Below are positions 8,401 to 23,146 of a stretch of 64,000 nucleotides of DNA, piece by piece. How positions within the stretch are numbered: position 1 is the first letter of the stretch; every line of letters starts with the position of its first letter. Made by a program: the position numbers and the translations under genes. Location: positions 248,001 through 312,000 of the forward strand of contig NZ_AP025344.1 in assembly GCF_021654795.1 (NCBI RefSeq), written 5' to 3'. The notes below the pieces were generated by a model, which saw nothing but the letters and a program-made list of their open reading frames with translations, made no database searches and was not told where the DNA came from. Origin of the DNA: Paenibacillus dendritiformis. Lineage in GTDB: Bacteria > Bacillota > Bacilli > Paenibacillales > Paenibacillaceae.

Positions 8401-9060
8401 ATGGAGTTTCATCTCATTGATGCGAAGGGGAAAAACCTATATTTCCCCGTCAATCCCGAGGAAGTGACCATCCGGAGGGAAAAGGGAATTGAGACCGTCA
8501 ACGTCATGTCATACGGGGAATTTGACTTTCCCAGCGGGGAGAAGGTGAAGGAAATCGCCTTCTCTTCTTTTTTTCCACAGGTGTACGATTCCGGGTATTG
8601 CAATTATGAAAATATCCCGGAACCGCACACGGCCATGAACTGGCTGAACAAGATGATCCAGGACAAGCAGCCAGTCCGTTTCATCATCACTGGCACGCCC
8701 GTTAATGTACTGGTTCTGGTGTCTGGCCATACCACCACGTTCAAGGGTGGGGAGCCGGGCGACATCTACTTTGAGCTCACCTTGAGAACTTGGCGGCGTG
8801 CAAGGGTGCATACGAAAGTACCGACAAAGAAGCCGGCAGCAAATAAGGCCCCTTCGCAAAGCGGGAAGACCACTCGACCGGATACGAAGCCGACGCCCAA
8901 GACGTATGTCGTGCGGAAAGGGGATACCCTATCAAAAATTGCGAAAATGGAGCTCGGCAGCAGTAGCAAGTGGAAGGCACTTTACGAGTTGAATAAAAAG
9001 GCGATAGGTCAAGACCCGAACAAAATTAAGCCCGGAACGAAGTTGGTGATGCCGACATGA
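8401..9060 (+). CDS. xkdP: LysM baseplate/tail protein, XkdP-like
   Basis: 219 residues. Residues 1-135 are the XkdP domain (FHLIDAKGKNLYFPVNPEEVTI; then a FELTLRTWRRARV end), followed by a basic proline-rich linker and a C-terminal LysM (about residues 168-218: YVVRKGDTLSKIAKMELG, KIKPGTKLVMP) that binds peptidoglycan. It joins the tube tip to the hub. Overlaps xkdQ by ATGA. Confidence 0.88.
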   Translation: MEFHLIDAKGKNLYFPVNPEEVTIRREKGIETVNVMSYGEFDFPSGEKVKEIAFSSFFPQVYDSGYCNYENIPEPHTAMNWLNKMIQDKQPVRFIITGTPVNVLVLVSGHTTTFKGGEPGDIYFELTLRTWRRARVHTKVPTKKPAANKAPSQSGKTTRPDTKPTPKTYVVRKGDTLSKIAKMELGSSSKWKALYELNKKAIGQDPNKIKPGTKLVMPT

Positions 9061-10172
9061 GTTATGAAGTGGTGCTGCAGAACAAGTATTATTTGCGGGA
9101 GTTGATCGAAAGCATCACGCTTAAGGATGCTCTCGATCAAATATCGTATCAAGCAGAAATAAAGCTCAAGATCCCGGCCACGGGTCTGAACATCGAGCCC
9201 GGGCAAGAGATCCGTGTGAGTGGCGTCCCATATGGGGCCGAAAAGATGGTTTACCTCTTGAATCCCGGCGTCGTTTGGGAATGCACAAGCAAAACCAAAG
9301 AATCAAAGCACATGGACGTGCTCATATACGATCGCACCATATACTTGGCGAGGTCAGAGGATGAATATCTATTCCCGGCCGGACAAACCGCGACCCAGCG
9401 GCTGCGGAAGTATGCGGCGGATTGGGGGATCAAGCTTTCGACAGTTCCGGACACCAAGACAAAGCTAAAAAAAGCCGTGTACCGCCCGAGACCGCTATAC
9501 AAAATGATTACTGCCGACTTGCAAGAAACGGTCAAATCCGGCGGGGATATGTACATTCCACGGATGACAACAACAGGCTTGGAACTATTCAAGGTGGGCA
9601 GCAACAAGACGGTGTGGGAGCTCCAATCGATTGAAGAGCTGACGCAAACGAGAACCTTGGAAGGCACCATCACCAAGGTAAAGGTGATCGGGACAGAAGA
9701 CCGGAAAGAAAAAACAAAATCCAAGTCGAGTGGGAAGGCCACCCCGGAGATACCAGAGGGCATGACGTTGGAAGAGTATGGGCGCCTATATGGGGCAAAG
9801 GTTCAAAAGGGCAGGGGTGGCAAGAAGCCCAAGGTCAAAGCATCAAAGGTTGAGCTGCCGTCCAAGATCCTCGCAATTGCAACGGGCCAGACGGCCAAGC
9901 TGGGAACGCTGCAGCGGATGGTCCAAGATGAGGACGTCAAAACACCAGCGGCGGCCAAGAAACTGGCTGAATCCATGCTTACAGGGATTCAGCAGACTTT
10001 CAGCGTCACGACCCTTGACTTGAACACAATTCGGGCTGGTGACGCCGTGAAGCTTAACGGGATGACTCTGATAGTCATGTCCGTGGTCCATGAGCTGGGG
10101 GAGCCCGGTCACATGACGCTTGAACTTGGCTCGACCGACTACGTAAAGAGGAGGTATTTTCTTGAGTACTGA
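9057..10172 (+). CDS. xkdQ: Baseplate hub protein, XkdQ-like
   Basis: 371 residues, coupled to xkdP (ATGA). The start (ELIESITLKDALDQISYQAEIKL) and the EDEYLFPAGQTATQRLRKYAADWGI segment are typical of XkdQ/YqbQ hub proteins related to gp27/VgrG cores. A lysine-rich loop lies near residues 215-255. It would form the central hub under the tube. The end overlaps xkdR by 11 bases. Confidence 0.85.
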   Translation: MSYEVVLQNKYYLRELIESITLKDALDQISYQAEIKLKIPATGLNIEPGQEIRVSGVPYGAEKMVYLLNPGVVWECTSKTKESKHMDVLIYDRTIYLARSEDEYLFPAGQTATQRLRKYAADWGIKLSTVPDTKTKLKKAVYRPRPLYKMITADLQETVKSGGDMYIPRMTTTGLELFKVGSNKTVWELQSIEELTQTRTLEGTITKVKVIGTEDRKEKTKSKSSGKATPEIPEGMTLEEYGRLYGAKVQKGRGGKKPKVKASKVELPSKILAIATGQTAKLGTLQRMVQDEDVKTPAAAKKLAESMLTGIQQTFSVTTLDLNTIRAGDAVKLNGMTLIVMSVVHELGEPGHMTLELGSTDYVKRRYFLEY

Positions 10173-10581
10173 TCCGTTTGATATTATCGCGCGGACCCTG
10201 CGTGGAGGAATGCAGATGCAGGCAGATGAGATGCTTTCCGGCGTCCCGGCCGAGCTGGGGACGATCACGGAGACTGGCCTCAAGCTCGACAACTTCAAGC
10301 ATGAGGTCCAGGACTACCTTGTGGCCGACTTCCTAGTTACGCTGCACCTTCCGGCCTTTTCGATGATCGGGACCACTGCATCGCCTGTGGACGAGGAAGG
10401 GGGCGCCAGCGGGCCGAAATCGCAGCGGGCGTTGTTTGAGTTTGAACCGACCCTGATTGAGCAAGTACGTGTCAATCTGGCCGCTGGGCTGCTGCCTGGC
10501 GAGCGTGTTCTGGTGCTGCCGACTAACGGCGGAGCTGATTTTGTGGTGATGTGCAGGGTGGTGAACAATAACAATGCCTAA
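10162..10581 (+). CDS. xkdR: DUF2577 baseplate protein, XkdR-like
   Basis: 139 residues from TTG 10162, which has GAGGAGG seven bases upstream and overlaps the xkdQ end. A C-terminal strand (LPGERVLVLPTNGGADFVVMCRV) is the conserved OB-like DUF2577 signature. This protein sits near the spike or hub of the baseplate. Overlaps the next gene by eight bases. Confidence 0.85.
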   Translation: MSTDPFDIIARTLRGGMQMQADEMLSGVPAELGTITETGLKLDNFKHEVQDYLVADFLVTLHLPAFSMIGTTASPVDEEGGASGPKSQRALFEFEPTLIEQVRVNLAAGLLPGERVLVLPTNGGADFVVMCRVVNNNNA

Positions 10582-11029
10582 CCTGTTCCCAGTGGATATT
10601 GAAAACGATTGGACGGAGGAGACGGAAGAGGCTACGGAGCCGGATGTCGCATTCGGCAGAAGCTGGCGTTTTGATTTCGAGAAGGGCGACTTCGTCATGA
10701 CCCCGACACGGAAAGTCGCCGCCGCAAACGAAACGGAAGCCTGGATCATGTGGTGCGAGAAAGCGATCCGGACGCCGCGGTACCGGCACCTGATATACTC
10801 ACGGGAGCATGGCGAAGAATTCGACAGTCTGATCGGAAAGGGGTACAGCCGGGCTGTCATCGAGAGCGAGATCCAGCGTATTGTGACCGAAACGCTGATG
10901 GTCGACCCGCGAACGGCCAGCGTCGACGGGTTTACGTTTTCCTGGTCCGGTGACGGCTGTCATTTCTCGTGCCGTATTCAAAATGTGCGAGAAGAGACGG
11001 AGGCTATTGAAGGGCGGGTGGAGACCTGA
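10574..11029 (+). CDS. xkdS: DUF2634 baseplate wedge protein, XkdS (gp25-like)
   Basis: 151 residues. It shows the DUF2634 pattern: SWRFDFEKGDFVMTP near residue 33, AWIMWCEKAIRTPRYRHLIYS around 55-75, and a FTFSWSGDGCHFSC strand late. gp25-like proteins start sheath polymerisation from the baseplate. The last base is shared with the start of xkdT. Confidence 0.88.
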   Translation: MPNLFPVDIENDWTEETEEATEPDVAFGRSWRFDFEKGDFVMTPTRKVAAANETEAWIMWCEKAIRTPRYRHLIYSREHGEEFDSLIGKGYSRAVIESEIQRIVTETLMVDPRTASVDGFTFSWSGDGCHFSCRIQNVREETEAIEGRVET

Positions 11030-12147
11030 TGGCGAATTTACCGCTCTATCTGCAAGAGCAAACCGAAGATGAAATTATGCAGCGCATGCTGGACCGTGTG
11101 CCCTCGGATATCGACGTTTCCGAGGGTTCTTTTATTTGGGATGCCCAGGCACCGGTTGCCTTCGTGTTGTCTGAGGCTGCGGTGTGGGCGCAGCAAGTTC
11201 TGGAACGCGGCTTTGCCAGTACGACTTTCGGGGAGTATCTGGACCTTAGGACGGCGGAGCACGGCGTAGTCCGGCGGGCGGCGGTGGCAGCCGTGGGGGA
11301 GGTCAAATTCAGCGGCACGGCCGGAAAGGTGATACCAGCTCAGACCATTGTCGCGACGCCAGCGGACGAGATATCGGGCGAGTCATCTATCGAATATGAG
11401 ACGACTGCAGCCGTGACGCTGGATGTCAATGGGGAAGGTATTGCAGCGATTCGTGCCCTCATCCCTGGCCGAAATGGGAATGTGCCCGCTGGCGTCATCG
11501 AGGTCATGTCCACCCCAATAGCCGGCGTGACGTCCGTGACGAATACTAAAGAGACAATCGGCGGGGCGGACACAGAATCGGACGAATCGCTTCTTGAACG
11601 CTTTTACGCCAGGGTCAGGAATCAGGGTACGAGCGGTAACAAGGCTCAGTACATCCAGTGGGCCGGAGAAGTGCCGGGCGTGGGGGGCGTTCAGGTTCAT
11701 CCTCTTTGGGACGGCCCGGGGACGGTTGGCGTCTATTTGTTGGACGTCGAGAAGCGCGCTGCATCTGACGAGATTGTCCAGGCAGCCCAAGAGTACATTG
11801 ACCCAACGATGGACGGGCAGGGAGAGGGGATGGCGCCAGCGGGGCCGATCGTGACGGTGATGGCAGCCGAGGAAGTACCGATCAGCGTCCGGGTGAAACT
11901 CACTCTGGCCAGTGGGGCTTCATTGGAAGAGGTGAGGACGCTGATACAGAACGGCACCCGTCAGTACCTGAAGCAGCTGGCCTTTGTTGATCCGCTTGTC
12001 CGCTACACGCGGATCGCCGCGGTACTCCTAGACATCCCGCCGATCATTGATTTTACGAGTTTGTCTATCAATGGCCTTAACGACGCTAATATCGAGATCG
12101 GCCCCGGCCAGGTAGCGGTATTGGGGACGGTGGATGTTTATGAGTGA
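11029..12147 (+). CDS. xkdT: Baseplate J family protein, XkdT-like
   Basis: 372 residues with the baseplate J pattern: an N-terminal DIDVSEGSFIWDAQAPVA segment, GTAGKVIPAQTIVATP, the central GGADTESDESLLERFYARVRNQGTSGNKAQYIQWAGEVPGVG stretch (residues about 180-225), and VTVMAAEEVPISVRV. It is a wedge component equivalent to gp6 of T4. The ends overlap both neighbours. Confidence 0.92.
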   Translation: MANLPLYLQEQTEDEIMQRMLDRVPSDIDVSEGSFIWDAQAPVAFVLSEAAVWAQQVLERGFASTTFGEYLDLRTAEHGVVRRAAVAAVGEVKFSGTAGKVIPAQTIVATPADEISGESSIEYETTAAVTLDVNGEGIAAIRALIPGRNGNVPAGVIEVMSTPIAGVTSVTNTKETIGGADTESDESLLERFYARVRNQGTSGNKAQYIQWAGEVPGVGGVQVHPLWDGPGTVGVYLLDVEKRAASDEIVQAAQEYIDPTMDGQGEGMAPAGPIVTVMAAEEVPISVRVKLTLASGASLEEVRTLIQNGTRQYLKQLAFVDPLVRYTRIAAVLLDIPPIIDFTSLSINGLNDANIEIGPGQVAVLGTVDVYE

Positions 12148-15927: not shown

Positions 15928-16132
15928 TGCGCTAAAATTGGCCGGAAGATGGCCGGGAAGTAACCGATTACAGAGATTAGAATCAAGATAGCGAACGAAA
16001 AATGCGATTTTTGGGGTGCTTGGGATGACAAGGGGATGGACGAAAACAAGGGGTGGGAAAATTTTCTTAGCCATATGGGAAAATATGTGTTACTATTTAG
16101 TCAACAAGTGGTTAAATAAAGGGGGGAGAAGA

Positions 16133-16771
16133 ATGGAACCCACTGTATTTGATGTTGCCGACTACTTCTTGGATAGATACAAGCGTGAAGGGCGTGCGGT
16201 TACACACTTACAGTTACAAAAGATGTGTTATTATGCCCAGGCGTATTATTCGGCAGAGTACGGGGAAGAAATGTTTACATCTATATTTGAGGCTTGGGCG
16301 CATGGTCCAGTGAGTCCCGCCCTCTATTCCAGATACCGATCAGCGGGCTATCAGCCGTTACCATTTCCTACTTCTGTGAATATAAATAAATTTACCTCCT
16401 GCATGATGGAGGTAATGGATACAGTATGGAATAAATTTTGGGATAAAGACCCAAAATGGTTAGAGAAGCAAACGCATATGGAAATACCTTGGAGGCAAGC
16501 TCGCGGGGCTACGCCTTATGGTGAAAAATGTACAAATATTATCGACATAAATGTAATGCGAGACTATTATAAGGGACTGATTGGCATGAAGGAAAGAAAG
16601 CCGTTAAAGCCCTTGTTTAAACTCAGCCAGATAAAACAAGCAGCCAAGACGATCGATTTATCATCACGTGGTACTGATGAGGAGTATTTCGATGCAATTC
16701 AGGCAGAACTAGAACAATTTAAAGTTCTTCGAGAAAGGGCAGCTGGTGCATGGGAAAGAGAAAACGAGTGA
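16133..16771 (+). CDS. Panacea-domain (DUF4065/SocA-like) protein, probable antitoxin
   Basis: 212 residues from ATG 16133, which follows a strong GGGGGGAGAAG site; upstream in-frame codons lack one. N-terminal Panacea domain: VADYFLDRYKREGRAVTHL, LQKMCYYAQAYYSAEYG (about residues 24-45) and FEAWAHGPVSPALYSRYRS. Panacea (PanA) domains act as antitoxins/chaperones for many unrelated toxins, usually in two-gene overlapping operons in phages. The next gene overlaps by 22 bases and looks like a PemK/MazF-fold protein. Base composition is AT-richer than the structural genes, suggesting cargo acquired separately. Confidence 0.8.
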   Translation: MEPTVFDVADYFLDRYKREGRAVTHLQLQKMCYYAQAYYSAEYGEEMFTSIFEAWAHGPVSPALYSRYRSAGYQPLPFPTSVNINKFTSCMMEVMDTVWNKFWDKDPKWLEKQTHMEIPWRQARGATPYGEKCTNIIDINVMRDYYKGLIGMKERKPLKPLFKLSQIKQAAKTIDLSSRGTDEEYFDAIQAELEQFKVLRERAAGAWERENE

Positions 16772-17166
16772 AATACCCGTTCGATGATCGGGTATTTCAG
16801 TATGGGGAAATATATAAAGTAAAAGATGAATATGTTGTTTTTCCAGAAGAAAAGTATGTAACTAGAACACAGCATGAATCACGGTTGGTATGTATAATCC
16901 ATCACTGTGAGGCAAATTCCGACCCGCGAGCCTGGGTAATAAACGTAGCTCCATTATCAAGTTGCATTGAAATGAAGCGTGATAATGATTTGGAGATTAC
17001 ACCCCAAAAAGGTAATTACATAGATCGGACCTCGCTAATTAGGTTAGGTTGTGCCCAGCCACTTTTAAAAATTGATTTGGAAGGGCCGGTGGGGGTATTA
17101 ACTGAAACGCAATTACTCCAATTAACAGCGCTTCAAATTCTACTCACAGGAACTGAACTGGATTAA
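16750..17166 (+). CDS. PemK/MazF-like protein, probable PanA-partner toxin
   Basis: 138 residues. ATG 16750 overlaps the Panacea gene by 22 bases; a GTG at 16768 overlaps its stop and is an alternative. The layout is that of the PemK/MazF small barrel: YGEIYKVKDEYVVF, SRLVCIIHH, WVINVAPLSS (MazF-like vvPlTS position), then IDRTSLIRLGCAQPLLKIDL and a C-terminal GVLTETQLLQLTALQILLTG helix. MazF-type toxins are ribonucleases; I cannot confirm catalytic residues. The pairing with a Panacea gene makes a toxin role likely, but this is inference. Confidence 0.6.
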   Translation: MGKRKRVKYPFDDRVFQYGEIYKVKDEYVVFPEEKYVTRTQHESRLVCIIHHCEANSDPRAWVINVAPLSSCIEMKRDNDLEITPQKGNYIDRTSLIRLGCAQPLLKIDLEGPVGVLTETQLLQLTALQILLTGTELD

Positions 17167-17170
17167 AGAA

Positions 17171-17196
17171 AAGCCCCGGATTTCTCCGAGGCTTTT
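17171..17196. terminator. Bidirectional intrinsic terminator between toxin and ligase genes
   Basis: AAGCCCCGGA (17171-17180) and TCCGAGGCTT (17185-17194) form a ten-pair stem with one mismatch, with A and T runs on both sides. It lies between converging genes. Confidence 0.75.
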
Positions 17197-18056
17197 TATA
17201 TTAAAAACTCCACGAATACCGGATCACGTAACATGCCCGCCTTCGTCCAATTCCGCGTTTTCACCTTCGCCCTTACCGTCGGCTGCAAGTAAACATTATT
17301 CTTATCCTCGCCAGTAATAAGGGAGTGACGTACTCCATAAAATGCACGTTTGTGATCTGGAGTCACGCCAAACTCTATAGCCCCCGCCGGCCGCAATCTC
17401 CCGGCCCCATCATCGATAGCCGCAATCCAACCAAACTCGTCCTTCCTATACCGGCCGATCCACACGTCCGTATAAGTCCAGTTAATTACTTTCTGCCATG
17501 ACGTTGATCGCCGGCTGACATACGTACTATCCTTCCGCTTGCACACGATGCCTTCCATGCTTCGAGAGCAGATATCGGCGTATAACGCTTCTCCGGCGCC
17601 TTCGATAAATGGGCAAATGGCTATGTGTCCATTGGGCGGGAGAGAGGCTGTCGTAAGTATTTCCTTGCGCTGCATGAGTGGTAACCCACGCAGGTCCACG
17701 CCGCGATAACTCAAGATATCAAATACAACGTAGGTGGCCGGCAACTGCCCCATAAGCCGGTTGATACTGTCTGAGCGGCGCGCCTGGAACCGCGTCATGA
17801 CGGCCTCAAAATCAACGACCCCAGCGGGATCGATGCATACGATCTCGCCGTCAAGGATCATATCCTCGCCGAACGGCGTGGATAACAGCTCCGGGTATTG
17901 TTGGGTACATTCATTATGGTGCCGTGTGTATATCCGGATGCGGCCGCCGATAATCGAAAGAATCGCTCTATGGCCGTCAAATTTAGGTTCAAATATATAG
18001 TTGTCGTCGTTGAATGCTGCCTCGGCCGTCTCGAGAAGCATTGGAGGTATAAACAT
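17196..18056 (-). CDS. ATP-dependent DNA ligase, YoqV-like
   Basis: 286 residues; AAGGTGAT lies just upstream of the ATG. Nucleotidyltransferase motifs are clear: motif I FEPKFDGHR with Lys25 as the AMP-accepting residue, MILDGEIV (motif III), YVVFDIL (IIIa), MEGIVCKR (IV), WQKVI (V). A C-terminal OB-like domain starts near residue 200 (VWIGRYRK). It seals nicks in duplex DNA with ATP. Length resembles the small phage-borne ligases of Bacillus (SPbeta YoqV). It lies opposite to its neighbours among the cargo genes. Confidence 0.88.
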   Translation of the reverse strand: MFIPPMLLETAEAAFNDDNYIFEPKFDGHRAILSIIGGRIRIYTRHHNECTQQYPELLSTPFGEDMILDGEIVCIDPAGVVDFEAVMTRFQARRSDSINRLMGQLPATYVVFDILSYRGVDLRGLPLMQRKEILTTASLPPNGHIAICPFIEGAGEALYADICSRSMEGIVCKRKDSTYVSRRSTSWQKVINWTYTDVWIGRYRKDEFGWIAAIDDGAGRLRPAGAIEFGVTPDHKRAFYGVRHSLITGEDKNNVYLQPTVRAKVKTRNWTKAGMLRDPVFVEFLI

Positions 18057-18275
18057 GTCATCACCTTCGGTAATTGTACCAATAGATTTTATATTATGGA
18101 GGTGGAAAGTAATGTAAGGGAGAAAATTCGGATAAGGGAAATGTCTTGTCGCACTTATTCACAAAGATGAAGATTTGATTACGCGTTGCCAAAAGTGTAT
18201 ATTTTCCAAAAGATATAGTATAATGATCCTATTATATAGACATGCTAGACTATTACTATATTCCTGGGTGATGAT

Positions 18276-18935
18276 GTGAATCTCTTTTTTGACGAATCGG
18301 GTAACATGGGACGAGACGGAAGATACTTTACAATTGCTTGTGTGGCTTGTAAAAATGATAAACAATTAAATAACGCTTTAAGTAGGGCGGAATTAAAAAC
18401 AAAAAGACAATTTCCTTATTTTAAGAGGTTTCAGGAAGTAAAGGCTAGTGATTCAAATCCCGTCATCAAAGATTATTATCTAAGAAAGATAGCGTCTAAA
18501 GAAGTGGAAATAAGATATATAGTGGCGGATTTAGAAAATGTAAAAAGCAGACTAAAAGAAGATTCAAATCTTTTGTATAACTATATGCTCCATTTTCTTA
18601 TTACGCCATACGCAAGAATCCCCAATGTTAACCATCTTAATATTGTCCTGGATAACCGGACTATAAGGGTGCAATCAGTTAATTCTTTTGCAGATTATAT
18701 AAAAATAAAAATGCAATATGAATTTCAGTGCAGGTATTCAATAAACGTGAAATACATGGAGTCCCAAAACTCTTACGGTATTCAGGCTGCGGACTTTATT
18801 GCTAATGCTGTTCAAACAAAATATCAATATGATTATGGATATTATTATTCATTATTTGAAAATAAAGTTGTACAGCGTGAGTTATTTCCAAGAGCATATT
18901 TTGGAACCAGTAAAGTTTTAACAATCAACAGATAA
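18276..18935 (+). CDS. DUF3800 protein
   Basis: 219 residues from GTG 18276 with GGGTGATG upstream and a TATAAT-like box at 18219-18224. It opens with FFDESGNMG, the hallmark of DUF3800, and has later acidic positions IVLDNRT and IQAADFIANAV consistent with an RNase H-like metal site. The coding sequence is strikingly AT-rich with many lysine AAA and tyrosine TAT codons, unlike neighbours, so it was probably acquired. DUF3800 proteins occur in mobile islands and some are tied to phage defence; no partner gene is seen next to it. Confidence 0.8.
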   Translation: MNLFFDESGNMGRDGRYFTIACVACKNDKQLNNALSRAELKTKRQFPYFKRFQEVKASDSNPVIKDYYLRKIASKEVEIRYIVADLENVKSRLKEDSNLLYNYMLHFLITPYARIPNVNHLNIVLDNRTIRVQSVNSFADYIKIKMQYEFQCRYSINVKYMESQNSYGIQAADFIANAVQTKYQYDYGYYYSLFENKVVQRELFPRAYFGTSKVLTINR

Positions 18936-20513: not shown

Positions 20514-20521
20514 CGTTTATC
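20514..20521. repeat. Target-site duplication, left copy (CGTTTATC)
   Basis: CGTTTATC here and again at 23139-23146 flank the element exactly outside its terminal GGGTAT inverted repeats. Eight bases is the usual duplication length of the ISL3 family. Confidence 0.85.
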
Positions 20522-20554
20522 GGGTATTGAACTTTCGAGGTGAAAATAGTGGGG

Positions 20555-20779
20555 TTAGCCACTAAAATTCATCTCTTCTTTTTTATCGAAATTGTGTGGT
20601 GTGTGCTCCAAAATGCTCGCACCCAGTATCACAACCTCTTTGTTGAGGTCGAGCCTTACACCATGCATATCCAAGCCGCTTTTTGTAACCACATGATCGA
20701 CTGGGATGATCTTCCCATTACTCATGACATTACAAATCAATCGGTCGCCTTCTTTGATGCTTGCATAAATGATTCGCAC
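20555..20779 (-). CDS. Small ORF coupled to ISL3 transposase
   Basis: 74 residues. GTG 20779 overlaps the transposase TAG (TAGTG) and has GAGGGGTGA six bases upstream, so it is translationally coupled. The sequence is beta-like: MRIIYASIKEGDRLICNVMS, KIIPVDHVVTKSGLDMHGVRLDL. No family recognised. It is inside the element ends, so it moves with the IS; it could be a regulator or accessory of transposition, but that is speculation. The element end hairpin TAGTGG-CCACTA (20548-20565) covers its stop. Confidence 0.55.
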   Translation of the reverse strand: MRIIYASIKEGDRLICNVMSNGKIIPVDHVVTKSGLDMHGVRLDLNKEVVILGASILEHTPHNFDKKEEMNFSG

Positions 20780-22155
20780 TAAAATTCACCCCTCTCAAAA
20801 ATGTCAGAAAGTGTGGTGATGTCCGTCCCAACGGTGACGAGTTTCGGTTCATCGCTGTAAATAGTGATCGGCTCCATCGAACCATCTGGACGGTAATGGA
20901 TGTTGTCGAAGCGTTCGAAACTCATATCCTTATCGAACTTCGGTTTGCGTACAGTTGCTCTCGTACCGTATAAAACCTTTGCTCTCAGCACGTCGTATGA
21001 ATACCCCTTTCCTGCCTTTTCTACCGTCTTGATGATGTTATTCACGCTTTCGGTATAGGCGTTTGTAAATGGATGCAGGAAGTAATTGAATATCTCCTGC
21101 TTGAAGTTGTTGAATGTCTTCTGGATCTCCTTGAACTGCTTAAACTCGGTAGGTATGCTTTGCTCCCATTTGTAGAAGCGTTGGAACGCCTCATAGCGGT
21201 CTTTTGATAGTCTGTAGATGTCACGCATATCCTCTTTGAGCCAGTACGCTGTAGCAAGCATTGGGAAGCACTTAAACCAGTAGTCACGCTTAATTATTTC
21301 TTCTGGCTTCAAGTCCTCTTTGTTCTTTAGTAGAACGTACCGATCACGAGTAAGAACGTGTTGCTCCTGCTTCGATAAGCCTTTCTTAATTGCGATACGG
21401 ATACTGTCTAAAGCACCGTTGGCGTACTTGATGACGTGAAACCTATCGATGACCACAAACGCATTGGGAACCAGCTCCTTAACGGCGTACTTGTATCCAG
21501 TCCACATGTCGATCGTAGCGACTTCGATGTTCTGCCAGCCTTCCATACGTTGGATCGTCTCTTTGACGGTGCGTTTCAGGTTGTCGGCTGTAATCTCCAG
21601 GATCATGTTATTCTCGTTGTCGGTAAATACACCACGCATAACCTTGTTAAGGTGTGCCTCGTCTATCCCCAAGACCCTTGGAGCAACCAAGGAACGGTGT
21701 TTCTCTTGGTCTGCCACATACTCGTCGAAGTACCGTTTTACAGTCGTGTGAGATACTCCGTACTCATCTGCGATGTGGGTGAATGGCTTCTTTAATGCCA
21801 TTAGCTTCATGTGTTCTACGAGCCGCTTAGTGACCTTCCCGCCCTTATCTACGCTGTCCAGTATCTCGTAGAACGTACCCCCGCAAGCAGGGCATCTGTA
21901 CCGTCTGTGGCGTATTACGAGCTTCACAGCCTTGTTGTGCATTGATGTGTCTGAGACGACACGTTCCTTGATCTGATGGGGTTTAAAGTCCTTGCCGTTG
22001 TCTTCAGGGAACAGGTTTGATTCACCGAACATCGGCTTCATCCAACCGCATTGAGTGCAGAAGTAAGGCGTTTCGTTCTTTTCTACGGTAAATTTATAGA
22101 AGTGCTCGTTTTGTTCTTTTGCGATTACATTGAATTCTGATAGATTTAGCATCAT
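20779..22155 (-). CDS. ISL3 family transposase
   Basis: About 458 residues. ATG 22155 (or 22152) is preferred over GTG 22161 because GAGGTG overlaps the latter. The N terminus has zinc-binding pairs CTQCGW and CPACGG, then a helix-turn-helix (ADEYGVSHTTVKRYFDEY). DDE catalytic core: VLGIDEAHL, then ATIDMWTGYKYAV and FVVIDRFHVIKYAN, and the late AYTESVNNIIK glutamate. No frame disruption, so it should be active. Its ribosome site falls inside one of the internal terminal-repeat copies (22154-22171). Confidence 0.92.
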   Translation of the reverse strand: MMLNLSEFNVIAKEQNEHFYKFTVEKNETPYFCTQCGWMKPMFGESNLFPEDNGKDFKPHQIKERVVSDTSMHNKAVKLVIRHRRYRCPACGGTFYEILDSVDKGGKVTKRLVEHMKLMALKKPFTHIADEYGVSHTTVKRYFDEYVADQEKHRSLVAPRVLGIDEAHLNKVMRGVFTDNENNMILEITADNLKRTVKETIQRMEGWQNIEVATIDMWTGYKYAVKELVPNAFVVIDRFHVIKYANGALDSIRIAIKKGLSKQEQHVLTRDRYVLLKNKEDLKPEEIIKRDYWFKCFPMLATAYWLKEDMRDIYRLSKDRYEAFQRFYKWEQSIPTEFKQFKEIQKTFNNFKQEIFNYFLHPFTNAYTESVNNIIKTVEKAGKGYSYDVLRAKVLYGTRATVRKPKFDKDMSFERFDNIHYRPDGSMEPITIYSDEPKLVTVGTDITTLSDIFERGEF

Positions 22156-22171
22156 TTTCACCTCGAAAGTT
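22154..22171. repeat. Internal copy of ISL3 terminal core, right-end orientation
   Basis: ATTTTCACCTCGAAAGTT is the exact reverse complement of 20530-20547 at the left end (18 of 18). It covers the transposase ribosome site and start, so bound transposase could repress its own gene, or this is a relic of an older right end. Confidence 0.75.
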
Positions 22172-22211
22172 GTCTAATAGGTAATATTATACAACTAACA
22201 AGGCTATTGGT

Positions 22212-22225
22212 GAACTTTCAGGGTG
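22212..22225. repeat. Internal copy of ISL3 terminal core, left-end orientation
   Basis: AACTTTCAGGGTG (22213-22225) is the exact reverse complement of 23118-23130 at the right end. With that end it brackets the methylase segment. Confidence 0.75.
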
Positions 22226-22228
22226 GTT

Positions 22229-22891
22229 TTATACCGCCTGCCTGATGCTTAAGTCACCTAAGTGTGACGGGAATTCTGTAGATTCAATCAATTTCTCATA
22301 ACGTTCTTCCACAAACTTCACAGCCAGAAAGTCAGAAACATCCTTGGAGTACGGCATTACGTTAAGGCTTGAGAACTGCATATGATCGTCCTTATCGTTT
22401 TGCACAAAGAACACGCCATAAGTATTTCGTGATAGGACATCGCAATGAATAATAATGGCGTTCATGCCTCTTATTAGGGCATTGAATAGTAAGAACGGTA
22501 TGGCTCTATCACTTAATTCTTCGCACACGTATAGATATTCAGATGGTCTGTAATCAAACGGAGAAGTCTGCATTCGATCTGCTTGCCATTTGCGAATTGT
22601 GATGCCTCCCGTACCTGCCGCACAATCGTAACCAGTACCTTCGCTACCAACCAGTGACACAAGCAAATCTGCTACACATACAGGAGTGAAGTCTTGCTTC
22701 TTGTTTTTACGGTCAGCGTGCTCATCTTGAAAGTAGTCATGAAACCAATCATATGAAACGTCGAAATCGAAGGCTTCAAGAAAGTTCATAAACAACTCTT
22801 CCCGTTTTTTGCGGTCATACAGAATTTCCATTATTTTCGCTGGTGCTTGGTAGGAGTCGCTTATTCCAAGCAATTTATTGATATTTTTCAT
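22229..22891 (-). CDS. N-6 DNA methylase-like passenger protein, catalytic motif not visible
   Basis: About 220 residues from ATG 22891 (GAGGTGAT four bases upstream; GTG 22900 falls in the site). It resembles the HsdM-type N6_Mtase core: KKQDFTPVCVADLLVSLVG and the SAM-binding YDCAAGTGGITIRKW (about residues 65-102), then IIIHCDVLSRNTYG. The expected NPPF/Y catalytic tetrapeptide is absent; the same place reads FFVQNDKDDHMQF. It may bind SAM or DNA without methylating. It is carried within the ISL3 element and preceded by a coupled 50-residue ORF. Confidence 0.7.
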   Translation of the reverse strand: MKNINKLLGISDSYQAPAKIMEILYDRKKREELFMNFLEAFDFDVSYDWFHDYFQDEHADRKNKKQDFTPVCVADLLVSLVGSEGTGYDCAAGTGGITIRKWQADRMQTSPFDYRPSEYLYVCEELSDRAIPFLLFNALIRGMNAIIIHCDVLSRNTYGVFFVQNDKDDHMQFSSLNVMPYSKDVSDFLAVKFVEERYEKLIESTEFPSHLGDLSIRQAV

Positions 22892-22896
22892 TTCAA

Positions 22897-23049
22897 TCAC
22901 CTCGACCGTTCTTTAATTAATTTTTCGATTTCCTTTTGGACGGTTAATTTAGCCATTTCCAACATGCCGATCACTTCGTAGTGATCCCAATCGGAAGTTC
23001 CTAATTCGATATTCAAACCAGTTTCATTTCGTTCGATGATTATTTTCAT
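22897..23049 (-). CDS. Small ORF upstream of the methylase-like gene
   Basis: 50 residues: MKIIIERNETGLNIELGTSD at the start and EMAKLTVQKEIEKLIKERSR at the end. GAGGTGA lies 11 bases before the ATG. Its TGA is embedded in the ribosome site of the methylase gene, so the two are coupled. The N-terminal strand plus C-terminal helix resemble small phage/IS accessory proteins; no family assigned. Confidence 0.55.
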   Translation of the reverse strand: MKIIIERNETGLNIELGTSDWDHYEVIGMLEMAKLTVQKEIEKLIKERSR

Positions 23050-23138
23050 TGCGGTACTTTTCACCTCGATTGTTCAAGAAAGTTTTGTGTTACTACTCTA
23101 TCGATTGGTGATCACTTCACCCTGAAAGTTGCATACCC

Positions 23139-23146
23139 CGTTTATC
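23139..23146. repeat. Target-site duplication, right copy (CGTTTATC)
   Basis: Matches 20514-20521 exactly and abuts the GGGTAT end of the ISL3 element. Confidence 0.85.

What the first reader, a model, noticed from the sequence alone, without database searches (positions are those of the whole stretch)
20522..23138. Intact ISL3 element carrying a methylase-like passenger and four copies of its terminal core
Imperfect GGGTAT...AACTTTC ends, an exact 8-bp duplication CGTTTATC, an unbroken transposase and two extra internal AACTTTC-RR-GGTG copies that bracket the transposase and methylase halves separately. This layout could be a fusion of two related elements or a deliberate set of transposase binding sites, and passenger methylases on IS are rarely noted.
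Basis: partly seen in the sequence, partly recalled or inferred. Interest (0 to 1): 0.75.

Follow-up and report, generated by a model that had tools for sequence, protein, structure and literature searches.

The report
ISL3 transposon with swappable DNA-modification cassette
A small jumping gene in a bacterial chromosome carries a phage-like DNA-methylase gene in a slot that its relatives, many of them in phages, fill with other genes, and extra copies of its end sequence sit at fixed places where the transposase probably binds, in part to control itself.

Summary
In detail: 20522-23138 is an ISL3 element with an 8-bp duplication, an unbroken transposase, a phage-type methylase-like gene and four AACTTTCRRGGTG cores (0.01 expected). 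A fifth, degenerate core (23061-23074) was missed. Fusion of two elements is not supported: related elements end at the outer sites and the inner sites lack the terminal GG. The layout is conserved instead. (1) The cargo-side end has a second direct core 56 bp in, in 7 of 8 clade members (weaker in the eighth); 58 of 63 wider ISL3 elements have one, best at 44-46, 55-57, 67 or 101-102 bp, steps of about a helical turn; the transposase-side end has it in 1 of 59. (2) The inner inverted pair, in 6 of 8 clade members, frames the transposase promoter: C runs into the -35 box, D overlaps the ribosome-binding site. This suggests autorepression. (3) Between the second core and the transposase module lies an exchangeable cassette, a DNA-modifying gene of five families in 6 of 8 clade members, against 4 of 55 elsewhere. 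Cargo-bearing ISL3 elements are known; I found no report of the phased end, the operator pair or this clade. Binding and enzyme activity are untested.

The parts
20514..20521 (.). target-site duplication, left copy CGTTTATC
   Evidence: exact match to 23139-23146, abuts the element
23139..23146 (.). target-site duplication, right copy CGTTTATC
20522..20545 (+). transposase-side outer end, with site E core 20530-20542 (AACTTTCGAGGTG)
   Evidence: inverted repeat of the other end, 19 of 24; no second core next to this end
20560..20776 (.). extra 217-bp segment, bounded by a 17-bp imperfect direct repeat; holds most of a 74-aa ORF (20555-20779, -) whose start overlaps the transposase stop
   Evidence: repeat D7; unmatched in L002 and L007; the window has 260 bp from transposase to end where L002, L007, L054 and L056 have 43; no phage match for the ORF
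20779..22161 (-). ISL3-family transposase, 460 aa from the listed GTG; ATG at 22155 or 22152 is a more probable start (my reading of the sequence)
   Evidence: NCBIfam transpos_ISL3 4.8e-76; PF01610, PF13542, PF14690 above their cut-offs
22159..22171 (-). inner site D, AACTTTCGAGGTG, overlapping the transposase ribosome-binding site (GAGGTG)
   Evidence: part of an 18-nt exact inverted copy of the site E region; same place in 6 of 8 clade members
22186..22214 (-). transposase promoter: -35 TTCACC (22214-22209), 17-nt spacer, -10 TATAAT (22191-22186)
   Evidence: best of 7 promoter-like matches in the region, 10 of 12; 7 found against 4.9 by chance, so conservation and not the score is the evidence; same geometry in 5 of 6 pair-bearing elements
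22213..22225 (+). inner site C, AACTTTCAGGGTG, whose outer bases run into the -35 box
   Evidence: 13-nt exact inverted copy of site A; conserved
22229..22900 (-). cargo: phage-type N6 DNA-methyltransferase-like protein, 223 aa
   Evidence: phrog_1071 8.8e-90, phrog_6380 2.5e-25; relatives encoded in 198 phage and 19 plasmid records
22897..23064 (-). cargo: 55-aa ORF, no relative found
   Evidence: no Pfam match, no PHROG match, no phage match
23061..23074 (-). site B, degenerate direct second copy of the core (AACAATCGAGGTGA), 56 bp inside the cargo-side end
   Evidence: 12 of 14 to site E; same place in 7 of 8 clade members at 11 of 14 or better, 9 of 14 in L056
23115..23138 (-). cargo-side outer end, with site A core 23118-23130 (AACTTTCAGGGTG)
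23061..23138 (-). cargo-side end module (sites A and B), the only part of the cargo side shared with L002, which carries another gene
   Evidence: homology to L002 covers element positions 1-78 and resumes at 914, the edge of site C
20522..22225 (-). transposase module (site C, promoter, site D, transposase, site E) shared with relatives that carry other cargo, apart from the 217-bp extra segment

Best explanation
This is a cargo-carrying ISL3 transposon built from three modules: a cargo-side end with two phased cores (A and B), an exchangeable cassette that here holds a phage-type methylase-like gene, and a transposase module. Shown: the anatomy, the 8-bp target duplication, the conservation of the sites, and different cassettes between the same two modules in related elements. 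Inferred: the transposase binds the shared core at all five sites. At A and B it builds an asymmetric complex that pairs with E, the helical phasing putting bound subunits on one face of the DNA. At C and D it sits on the -35 box and on the start of the transcript and ribosome-binding site, and represses its own gene. The methylase-like gene is cargo that helps the element, or the phage or prophage carrying it, most likely by protecting DNA against restriction; it is not needed for transposition as such, because relatives carry unrelated genes in its place.
For: Two relatives found by their transposase alone have the same four cores in the same order, the same 41-nt gap between the inner pair, and exact 8-bp duplications (L002/L006 Cohnella sp. 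AR92, CGGTGTTA; L007, CCTAAATA), but carry an N6_N4 methylase and a Mom protein instead. Site B at +56 with at least 11 of 14 matches in 7 of 8 clade members; 9 of 14 in L056, which is 96% identical to L054 over positions 1-78. Across 63 elements, 58 have a second core (at least 11 of 14) on the cargo side, best offset 44-46 (27), 55-57 (24), 67 (1) or 101-102 (6); 42 of 45 clusters at 80% transposase identity, built from 60 of the 63. Transposase side 1 of 59; shuffled sequence 20 of 1180. Inner pair around the promoter in 6 of 8 clade members, the -35 starting at the last two bases of site C with a 17-nt spacer in 5 of 6, the sixth with a weaker -10 by eye. Cassette exchange: in 12 of 17 chosen pairs the homology covers only the end module and the transposase module, and in 9 of these 12 it stops within 4 bp of the end of site B. 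The clade is supported 100/100 (7 of its 8 members; L057 was left out).
Against: No binding, repression or transposition was measured. GAGGTG in site D is also a good Shine-Dalgarno sequence, so part of that match could be translational, though AACTTTC is not explained so. L069, the deepest clade member, has no inner pair, and L053 has two C-like copies but no D; in L054 site D did not pass the shuffle test against its own diverged ends. In the window and L002 a GGCTAT or GGCTAC stands 11 nt outside site C, which could be a relic of a true end. Outside the clade an inner pair passed the test (p 0.05 or less on both strands) only in L084 and L122, and single copies in L113, L115, L121 and L126, about what many tests would give by chance, so the operator pair is not general. 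Five of 63 elements miss the second core at 11 of 14. The methylase family shows no canonical (N/D/S)PP(Y/F) motif in the 11 aligned members, and the model is of low confidence with no fold match, so enzymatic activity is an annotation.
Confidence: 0.72

Rival explanations
1. Fusion: a transposase-only ISL3 element (E to D, about 1650 bp) and a small non-autonomous methylase element (C to A) landed side by side and now move as one; the inner sites are the old abutting ends and may still act as ends.
For: In the window D copies E (18 of 18 nt) and C copies A (13 of 13 nt), as abutting ends would. Each half is bounded by correctly oriented inverted cores. A GGCTAT or GGCTAC stands 11 nt outside site C in the window and L002. 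L059, a wider relative, holds a nested second cargo end (60 of 78 at position 399), so side-by-side events may happen in this lineage.
Against: None of the 7 clade members flanked by a duplication (6 exact, L057 6 of 8) ends at an inner site (one search did not demand GG at the ends). At the 8-nt distance seen in outer ends the inner sites lack GG in 6 of 6 pair-bearing elements, while outer ends begin GG in 8 of 8 on the transposase side and 7 of 8 on the cargo side (the end finder demanded GG, so this is partly selected). Gap and promoter geometry persist while cargo changes. All 58 elements with ends have at least 445 bp of cargo side; the two cargo-free elements seen (L030, L033) are of another ISL3 lineage and were set aside.
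Confidence: 0.12
2. The inner matches mostly reflect a shared translation signal: GAGGTGA is a strong Shine-Dalgarno sequence and recurs in front of cargo genes, so copies arise by convergence.
For: Core-like stretches at 22897-22911 and 23058-23074 also precede ORFs and contain TCGAGGTGA.
Against: Site C is inverted and in front of no gene; AACTTTC is outside the Shine-Dalgarno part; B keeps its 56-bp place while the DNA behind it differs; a second core also occurs in relatives whose core sequence is quite different.
Confidence: 0.08
3. The cargo is essential to transposition itself, for instance the methylase marks the ends and couples transposition to replication as Dam does for IS10 and IS50 (recalled comparison).
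For: DNA-modifying genes fill the slot in 6 of 8 clade members.
Against: L054 and L069 have none recognised, although both have exact duplications; the enzymes are of five families unlikely to mark one common site; wider relatives carry unrelated cargo.
Confidence: 0.08

Closest known systems
Cargo-bearing ISL3 elements ISPst2 and ISPpu12
   Same: ISL3 transposase and passenger genes inside one element: ISPst2a/b, 2985 bp, GGGTAT ends, 8-bp repeats, ArsR regulator and permease (PMC6305408, passages read); ISPpu12a, 3372 bp, predicted CzcD (PMC4447125, passages read)
   Different: ISPst2 ends read GGGTATCCGGAATT against GGGTATGCAACTTTC here; passengers are regulator, permease or metal genes; no inner operator pair or phased second core is mentioned in the passages read
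fosB3 ISL3-like element of Enterococcus faecium and the emtA element
   Same: A passenger gene next to an ISL3 transposase; [quoted passage not shown] The emtA-bearing element seen here (L157) has an exact 8-bp duplication and a second core at 55
   Different: Resistance cargo, another end type, no inner pair mentioned in the passages read
phrog_1071 phage N6 DNA methyltransferases
   Same: The cargo protein matches this family; nearest relatives found are 80-84% identical on Paenibacillaceae plasmids, with no annotated transposase in the 10.6-kb stretches fetched
   Different: Those genes lie among other plasmid genes; here the gene is inside a transposon
Phage Mom DNA-modification proteins
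   Same: Cargo of the sister element L007 (PF25680 2.3e-33; phrog_1384 1.6e-51)
   Different: Carried by an ISL3 element, in place of the window's methylase-like gene

Membership tests
ISL3 insertion-sequence family | ISL3-type DDE transposase with Zn ribbon and HTH | tested here: met
   PF01610 1.9e-54, PF13542, PF14690 all above cut-off; NCBIfam equivalog above cut-off
ISL3 insertion-sequence family | 8-bp target duplication and terminal inverted repeats that begin GG (recalled family features; also listed for ISPst2 and ISArsp7) | tested here: met
   CGTTTATC, 19 of 24 inverted-repeat match, GGG at both ends
ISL3 insertion-sequence family | transposition through a circular intermediate (reported for family members in PMC3812183, passages read) | not testable with these tools
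   needs excision PCR or long reads
Cargo-bearing ISL3 elements (ISPst2, ISPpu12, fosB3 type) | passenger gene(s) between one end and the transposase, inside one duplication-flanked unit | tested here: met
   cargo lies inside the unit
Fusion of two functional elements | inner copies are complete ends with terminal GGGTAT, or relatives end there | tested here: not met
   0 of 7 clade members with a flanking duplication end there; GG missing at the expected distance from inner sites in 6 of 6
DNA N6-methyltransferase (phrog_1071) | profile match over most of the protein | tested here: met
   residues 2-209 of 223, 8.8e-90
DNA N6-methyltransferase (phrog_1071) | SAM-binding motif I | tested here: met
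   GTGG invariant in 11 of 11; this region aligns to motif I of an N6 DNA methylase, hhalign P 1.9e-4 but probability only 48
DNA N6-methyltransferase (phrog_1071) | canonical catalytic (N/D/S)PP(Y/F) motif (recalled) | tested here: not met
   not seen in the 11 aligned members; an invariant N168 in (V/I)(Q/E)N stands near the expected place
Transposase autoregulation by end-like operators | transposase binds the inner sites and lowers its own transcription | not testable with these tools
   only promoter geometry and conservation shown

The most novel reading that the evidence does not exclude
A large, much phage-borne branch of ISL3 is a cassette-carrier platform: a cargo end with two or three transposase sites quantised by helical turns makes everything between the last site and the transposase a free slot, cassettes are swapped cleanly there (sometimes leaving a nested old end), and one clade has specialised in carrying DNA-modifying enzymes of five families between phages and hosts while repressing its transposase through copies of its own end core.
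Probability: 0.42. Interest if true: 0.78.

Novelty: new variant of a known kind. Interest (0 to 1): 0.62.

Why it matters
It would explain how a simple one-transposase IS can carry genes at all: the cargo-side end is a self-contained complex end, so the DNA behind it is free to change. It names a likely route by which anti-restriction and DNA-modification genes move among phages, plasmids and hosts, and it makes two questions directly testable: what helical phasing of end sites does in ISL3 transposition, and whether ISL3 transposases repress themselves. It also gives a rule (a second core near 45 or 56 bp) for finding the cargo-side ends of ISL3 elements that annotation now leaves open.

Tried and rejected
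Pattern for the inner pair (CACCNNGAAAGTTN{30,55}AACTTTCNNGGTG): 0 matches in viral contigs and only the window's own genome among 392 genomes of the order. L002's site C differs by one base, so it is missed; the sampled set did include G101 and this exact pattern gave it no match. Genome scan by the transposase: 1 locus in genome contigs; 1 of 398 class genomes at E 1e-95, the own one, so the clade looks rare. By the methylase: 2 of 295 family genomes, the own and one at E 9.9e-4. Genera of L007 and L002: only those genomes themselves carry the clade's transposase among 6 and 37 (each search also showed one 35-38% match).

Empty site: sister genome G122 matches the right flank from window 23157 on and the left flank, more weakly and in pieces, to about 20498, but holds roughly 780 bp of other DNA between, so it is no clean empty site.

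Methylase structure: AlphaFold2 mean pLDDT 63.6, pTM 0.70; Foldseek against PDB gave no match at E 0.001; sequence search of PDB gave one meaningless match at E 0.51 for the methylase and none for the transposase profile.

Ends: found by script in 72 of 127 loci with a transposase match, not in 55; the 127 include repeat fetches of the same place, and many loci have only 1.5-kb flanks. Loci without ends are left out of all counts, L061 (Lysinibacillus phage, Dam gene just upstream) and L060 (C. difficile phage, ExoX-like gene upstream) among them. Dropped before counting the 58: repeat fetches L005, L006, L051, L066, L068, L131, L078; near-identical copies L103, L105, L106, L138; L030 and L033 (cargo-free, 24-25% identity to the query that matched best, another ISL3 lineage, used as controls without a second core); L107 (weak ends). 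L053 was added by hand from its cores; it has no target duplication and a damaged cargo-side end. Of 8 plasmid loci fetched, 4 had ends with exact duplications and were added (L151, L152, L153, L157); L156 had ends and a second core at 55 but no duplication, and L150, L154 and L155 gave no convincing ends; these 4 were left out. This gives 63, which still include near copies (L085/L153 99.9%, L133/L140 97%). The rule for ends demanded GG at both ends and 8 of 8 duplication bases, or 6 with a strong inverted repeat, so the share of exact duplications (54 of 58) is partly selected.

Cargo and control: 80 cargo ORFs from 60 of the 63 elements were scanned (L072, L088 and L122 gave only shorter or antisense ORFs); antisense ORFs were replaced by hand with same-strand ones and most ORFs under about 80 aa were left out. 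The scan of a set names no members; L064, L137 and L151 were assigned to their families by sequence, ORF or annotation. Neighbour control: 122 of 231 flanking ORFs scanned, 25 of 63 families shown, so 'at least 2' methylases is a lower bound. The Fisher test ignores relatedness. The pairs were chosen by me for similar transposases.

Paper searches, open-licence papers only; listings seen, passages read in PMC6305408, PMC3812183, PMC4447125, PMC10266640, PMC9484755 and PMC5644110. ISfinder and most subscription papers are not held.
Full report
What is there. The element runs from 20522 to 23138, between two copies of CGTTTATC. Site B has two mismatches and was missed. The element is present once in its 6.55-Mb genome. 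Phage tail genes (YQBQ-like, Baseplate_J) lie about 8-11 kb to its left in the window, so it may sit in or beside a prophage; the prophage's limits were not mapped.

Relatives found by transposase alone. In 295 genomes of the family the two nearest transposases are 81% (L006, the same contig as L002, Cohnella sp. AR92) and 63% identical (L007). Both have four cores in the same order and orientation with the same 41-nt gap between the inner two (L002's site C with one mismatch), and exact 8-bp duplications of their own. But their cargo is different: an N6_N4 methylase (PF01555, 6.9e-45) and a Mom protein (PF25680, 2.3e-33). Phage and viral-contig searches added L053 (PF01555), L056 (Bacillus phage BSP9; Dam, PF05869), L057 (Bacillus phage BUCT083; MethyltransfD12 at a weak 7.8e-8; transposase broken), L054 and L069 (no recognised DNA-modifying gene). 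So 6 of 8 members, the window included, carry a DNA-modifying gene, of five families: phrog_1071, PF01555 (twice), Mom, Dam, D12. L055 is a fragment and not counted. Seven of the eight (all but L057) form one group with 100/100 support; L069 is the deepest.

The wider lineage. A viral-contig search with a broader profile found 149 relatives and kept the best 80. An end-finding script (inverted repeats plus target duplication) found ends in 72 of 127 loci with a transposase match; after setting aside 10 loci and 4 near-identical copies, 58 elements remain, 54 with an exact duplication. All 58 have 445 to 3591 bp between the cargo-side end and the matched transposase start. With L053 and four plasmid elements there are 63. 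Pfam families among 80 cargo ORFs from 60 of them include YopX (3), Lar restriction alleviation (2), Fic (2), NADAR (1), PAPS reductase (1) and DNA-modifying genes. DNA-modifying cargo is in 10 of 63: 6 of 8 in the AACTTTC clade and 4 of 55 elsewhere (L058 D12, L064 C5-methylase, L137 Dam, L151 N6 methylase), Fisher p 7.6e-5 without correction for relatedness. Among 122 neighbouring ORFs outside the elements at least 2 are DNA methylases, against 10 of 80 cargo ORFs (with the window's protein counted from its PHROG match).

The phased cargo end. In 7 of 8 clade members a direct second core with at least 11 of 14 matches to one of the element's own end cores lies exactly 56 bp inside the cargo-side end; in L056 the same place has 9 of 14, in an end module 96% identical to that of L054. 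In the whole set 58 of 63 elements have such a second core, and within the searched range (16-129) the best offset is always 44-46 (27), 55-57 (24), 67 (1) or 101-102 (6). Several elements have three sites, at 45 or 56 and at 101-102, which is about 45 plus 56. The steps of about 11 bp are close to one turn of the helix. The transposase-side end shows a second core in 1 of 59; shuffled sequence in 20 of 1180. At 80% transposase identity, 42 of 45 clusters have it (60 of 63 elements could be clustered). Of eight chromosomal ISL3 loci fetched with longer flanks, several of them beside ArsR- and MFS-like genes by eye, five gave ends with a second core at 45 or 46 (11, 11, 10, 13 and 13 of 14; L168 and L169 are alike and L169 has a poor duplication); three gave no convincing ends. 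Two cargo-free elements of another lineage lack it.

The slot. Seventeen pairs of related elements were chosen and compared by blastn. Four share all or much of their cargo (L010/L079, L081/L086, L092/L093, L085/L153) and one (L059/L072) shares about 150 bp next to the transposase. In the other 12 the homology covers only the end module and the transposase module (in L059/L062 also the nested end). In 9 of these 12 the end-module homology stops within 4 bp of the last base of site B; in L130/L135, L130/L133 and L092/L101 it runs on, to 119-154. Examples: L058 and L070 have transposases 94% identical but a D12 methylase in one and an unrelated gene in the other; L001 and L002 share 1-78 and resume at the edge of site C. 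L059 holds a second, nested cargo end (60 of 78 at position 399, shuffled maximum 37), the only one found by this test, a possible trace of how cargo is gained.

The inner pair. Near the transposase start, a + core at -10 to -22 and a - core at -65 to -84 are found in L001, L002, L007, L054, L056 and L057 (in L054 the + core is not significant against that element's own diverged ends but is a perfect AACTTTCGAGGTG). L053 has two C-like copies and no D; L069 has neither. Gaps are 41, 41, 41, 47, 48 and 38 nt. In five of the six, the -35 box (TTCACC, TTCACC, TTCATT, TTCACT, TTCACG) begins with the last two bases of site C and is followed after 17 nt by TATAAT (three), TAAAAT or TACAAT; in L057 the same place reads TTCAAA, 17 nt, CACAAT by eye. 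Site D covers the ribosome-binding site. The promoter match alone would not convince (7 found, 4.9 expected); its fixed place between the two sites in separate elements does. None of the inner sites has GG at the distance seen in outer ends, though the window and L002 have GGCTAT or GGCTAC three bases further out from site C. This is the anatomy of a self-repressed transposase gene rather than of two fused elements. Outside the clade an inner pair passed the shuffle test only in L084 and L122.

The cargo protein. It matches phrog_1071, with relatives in 198 phage records, mostly of Lactococcus and Streptococcus, and 80-84% identical relatives on Paenibacillaceae plasmids without an annotated transposase nearby. 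The residues invariant in the family are kept, the GTGG of motif I included, but no aligned member shows a canonical NPPY-type motif. Calling it a working methylase is therefore annotation. Function as anti-restriction cargo is inference from the company it keeps.

What is known. ISL3 elements with passengers are in print: ISPst2 and ISPpu12 with regulator, permease or metal genes (PMC6305408 and PMC4447125, passages read) and the fosB3 element with a circular form (PMC3812183, passages read). I found no paper on phased second cores, on inner operator-like cores, or on DNA-modification cargo in ISL3 (searches; open-licence papers only, listings and selected passages seen). ISfinder could not be searched. 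I rate it a new variant of a known kind.

Noticed in passing
window 20560-20776: A 217-bp segment between transposase and its outer end, bounded by CACTAAAATTCATCTCT / CACTAAAATTCACCCCT, unmatched in L002 and L007; it carries most of a 74-aa ORF whose GTG start overlaps the transposase stop. A second, transposase-side insertion.
   Followed up: partly
window 9057-12147: Phage tail genes (YQBQ-like, Baseplate_J) about 8-11 kb to the left of the element, so the element may sit in or beside a prophage.
   Followed up: partly
window 16016-18935: A SocA/Panacea antitoxin-like protein, an ATP-dependent DNA ligase and a DUF3800 protein near one another, a possible defence or phage accessory patch.
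   Followed up: no
L064 4761-7652 and L066: One 346-kb contig of genome G046 carries two different ISL3 cargo elements, one with Mom and one with a C5 cytosine methylase, plus shorter transposase matches near 205 and 254 kb.
   Followed up: partly
L059 2741-5375: Vibrio phage Seahorse element with a nested second cargo end at element position 399, a possible fossil of cargo gain.
   Followed up: partly
L070, L077, L096, L143, L146: Cargo ORFs that look like PAPS reductase or DndC-type sulphur-transfer proteins by eye; Pfam supports one of the set. Possibly further DNA-modification or defence cargo.
   Followed up: partly
L151 329-5425: A 5.1-kb ISL3 element on a Sulfuricystis plasmid whose cargo is a 1090-aa N6 DNA methylase, with exact 8-bp duplication.
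   Followed up: partly
L168-L175: Chromosomal ISL3 loci of the family, several with ArsR- and MFS-like genes upstream of the transposase; five show a second core at 45 or 46.
   Followed up: partly
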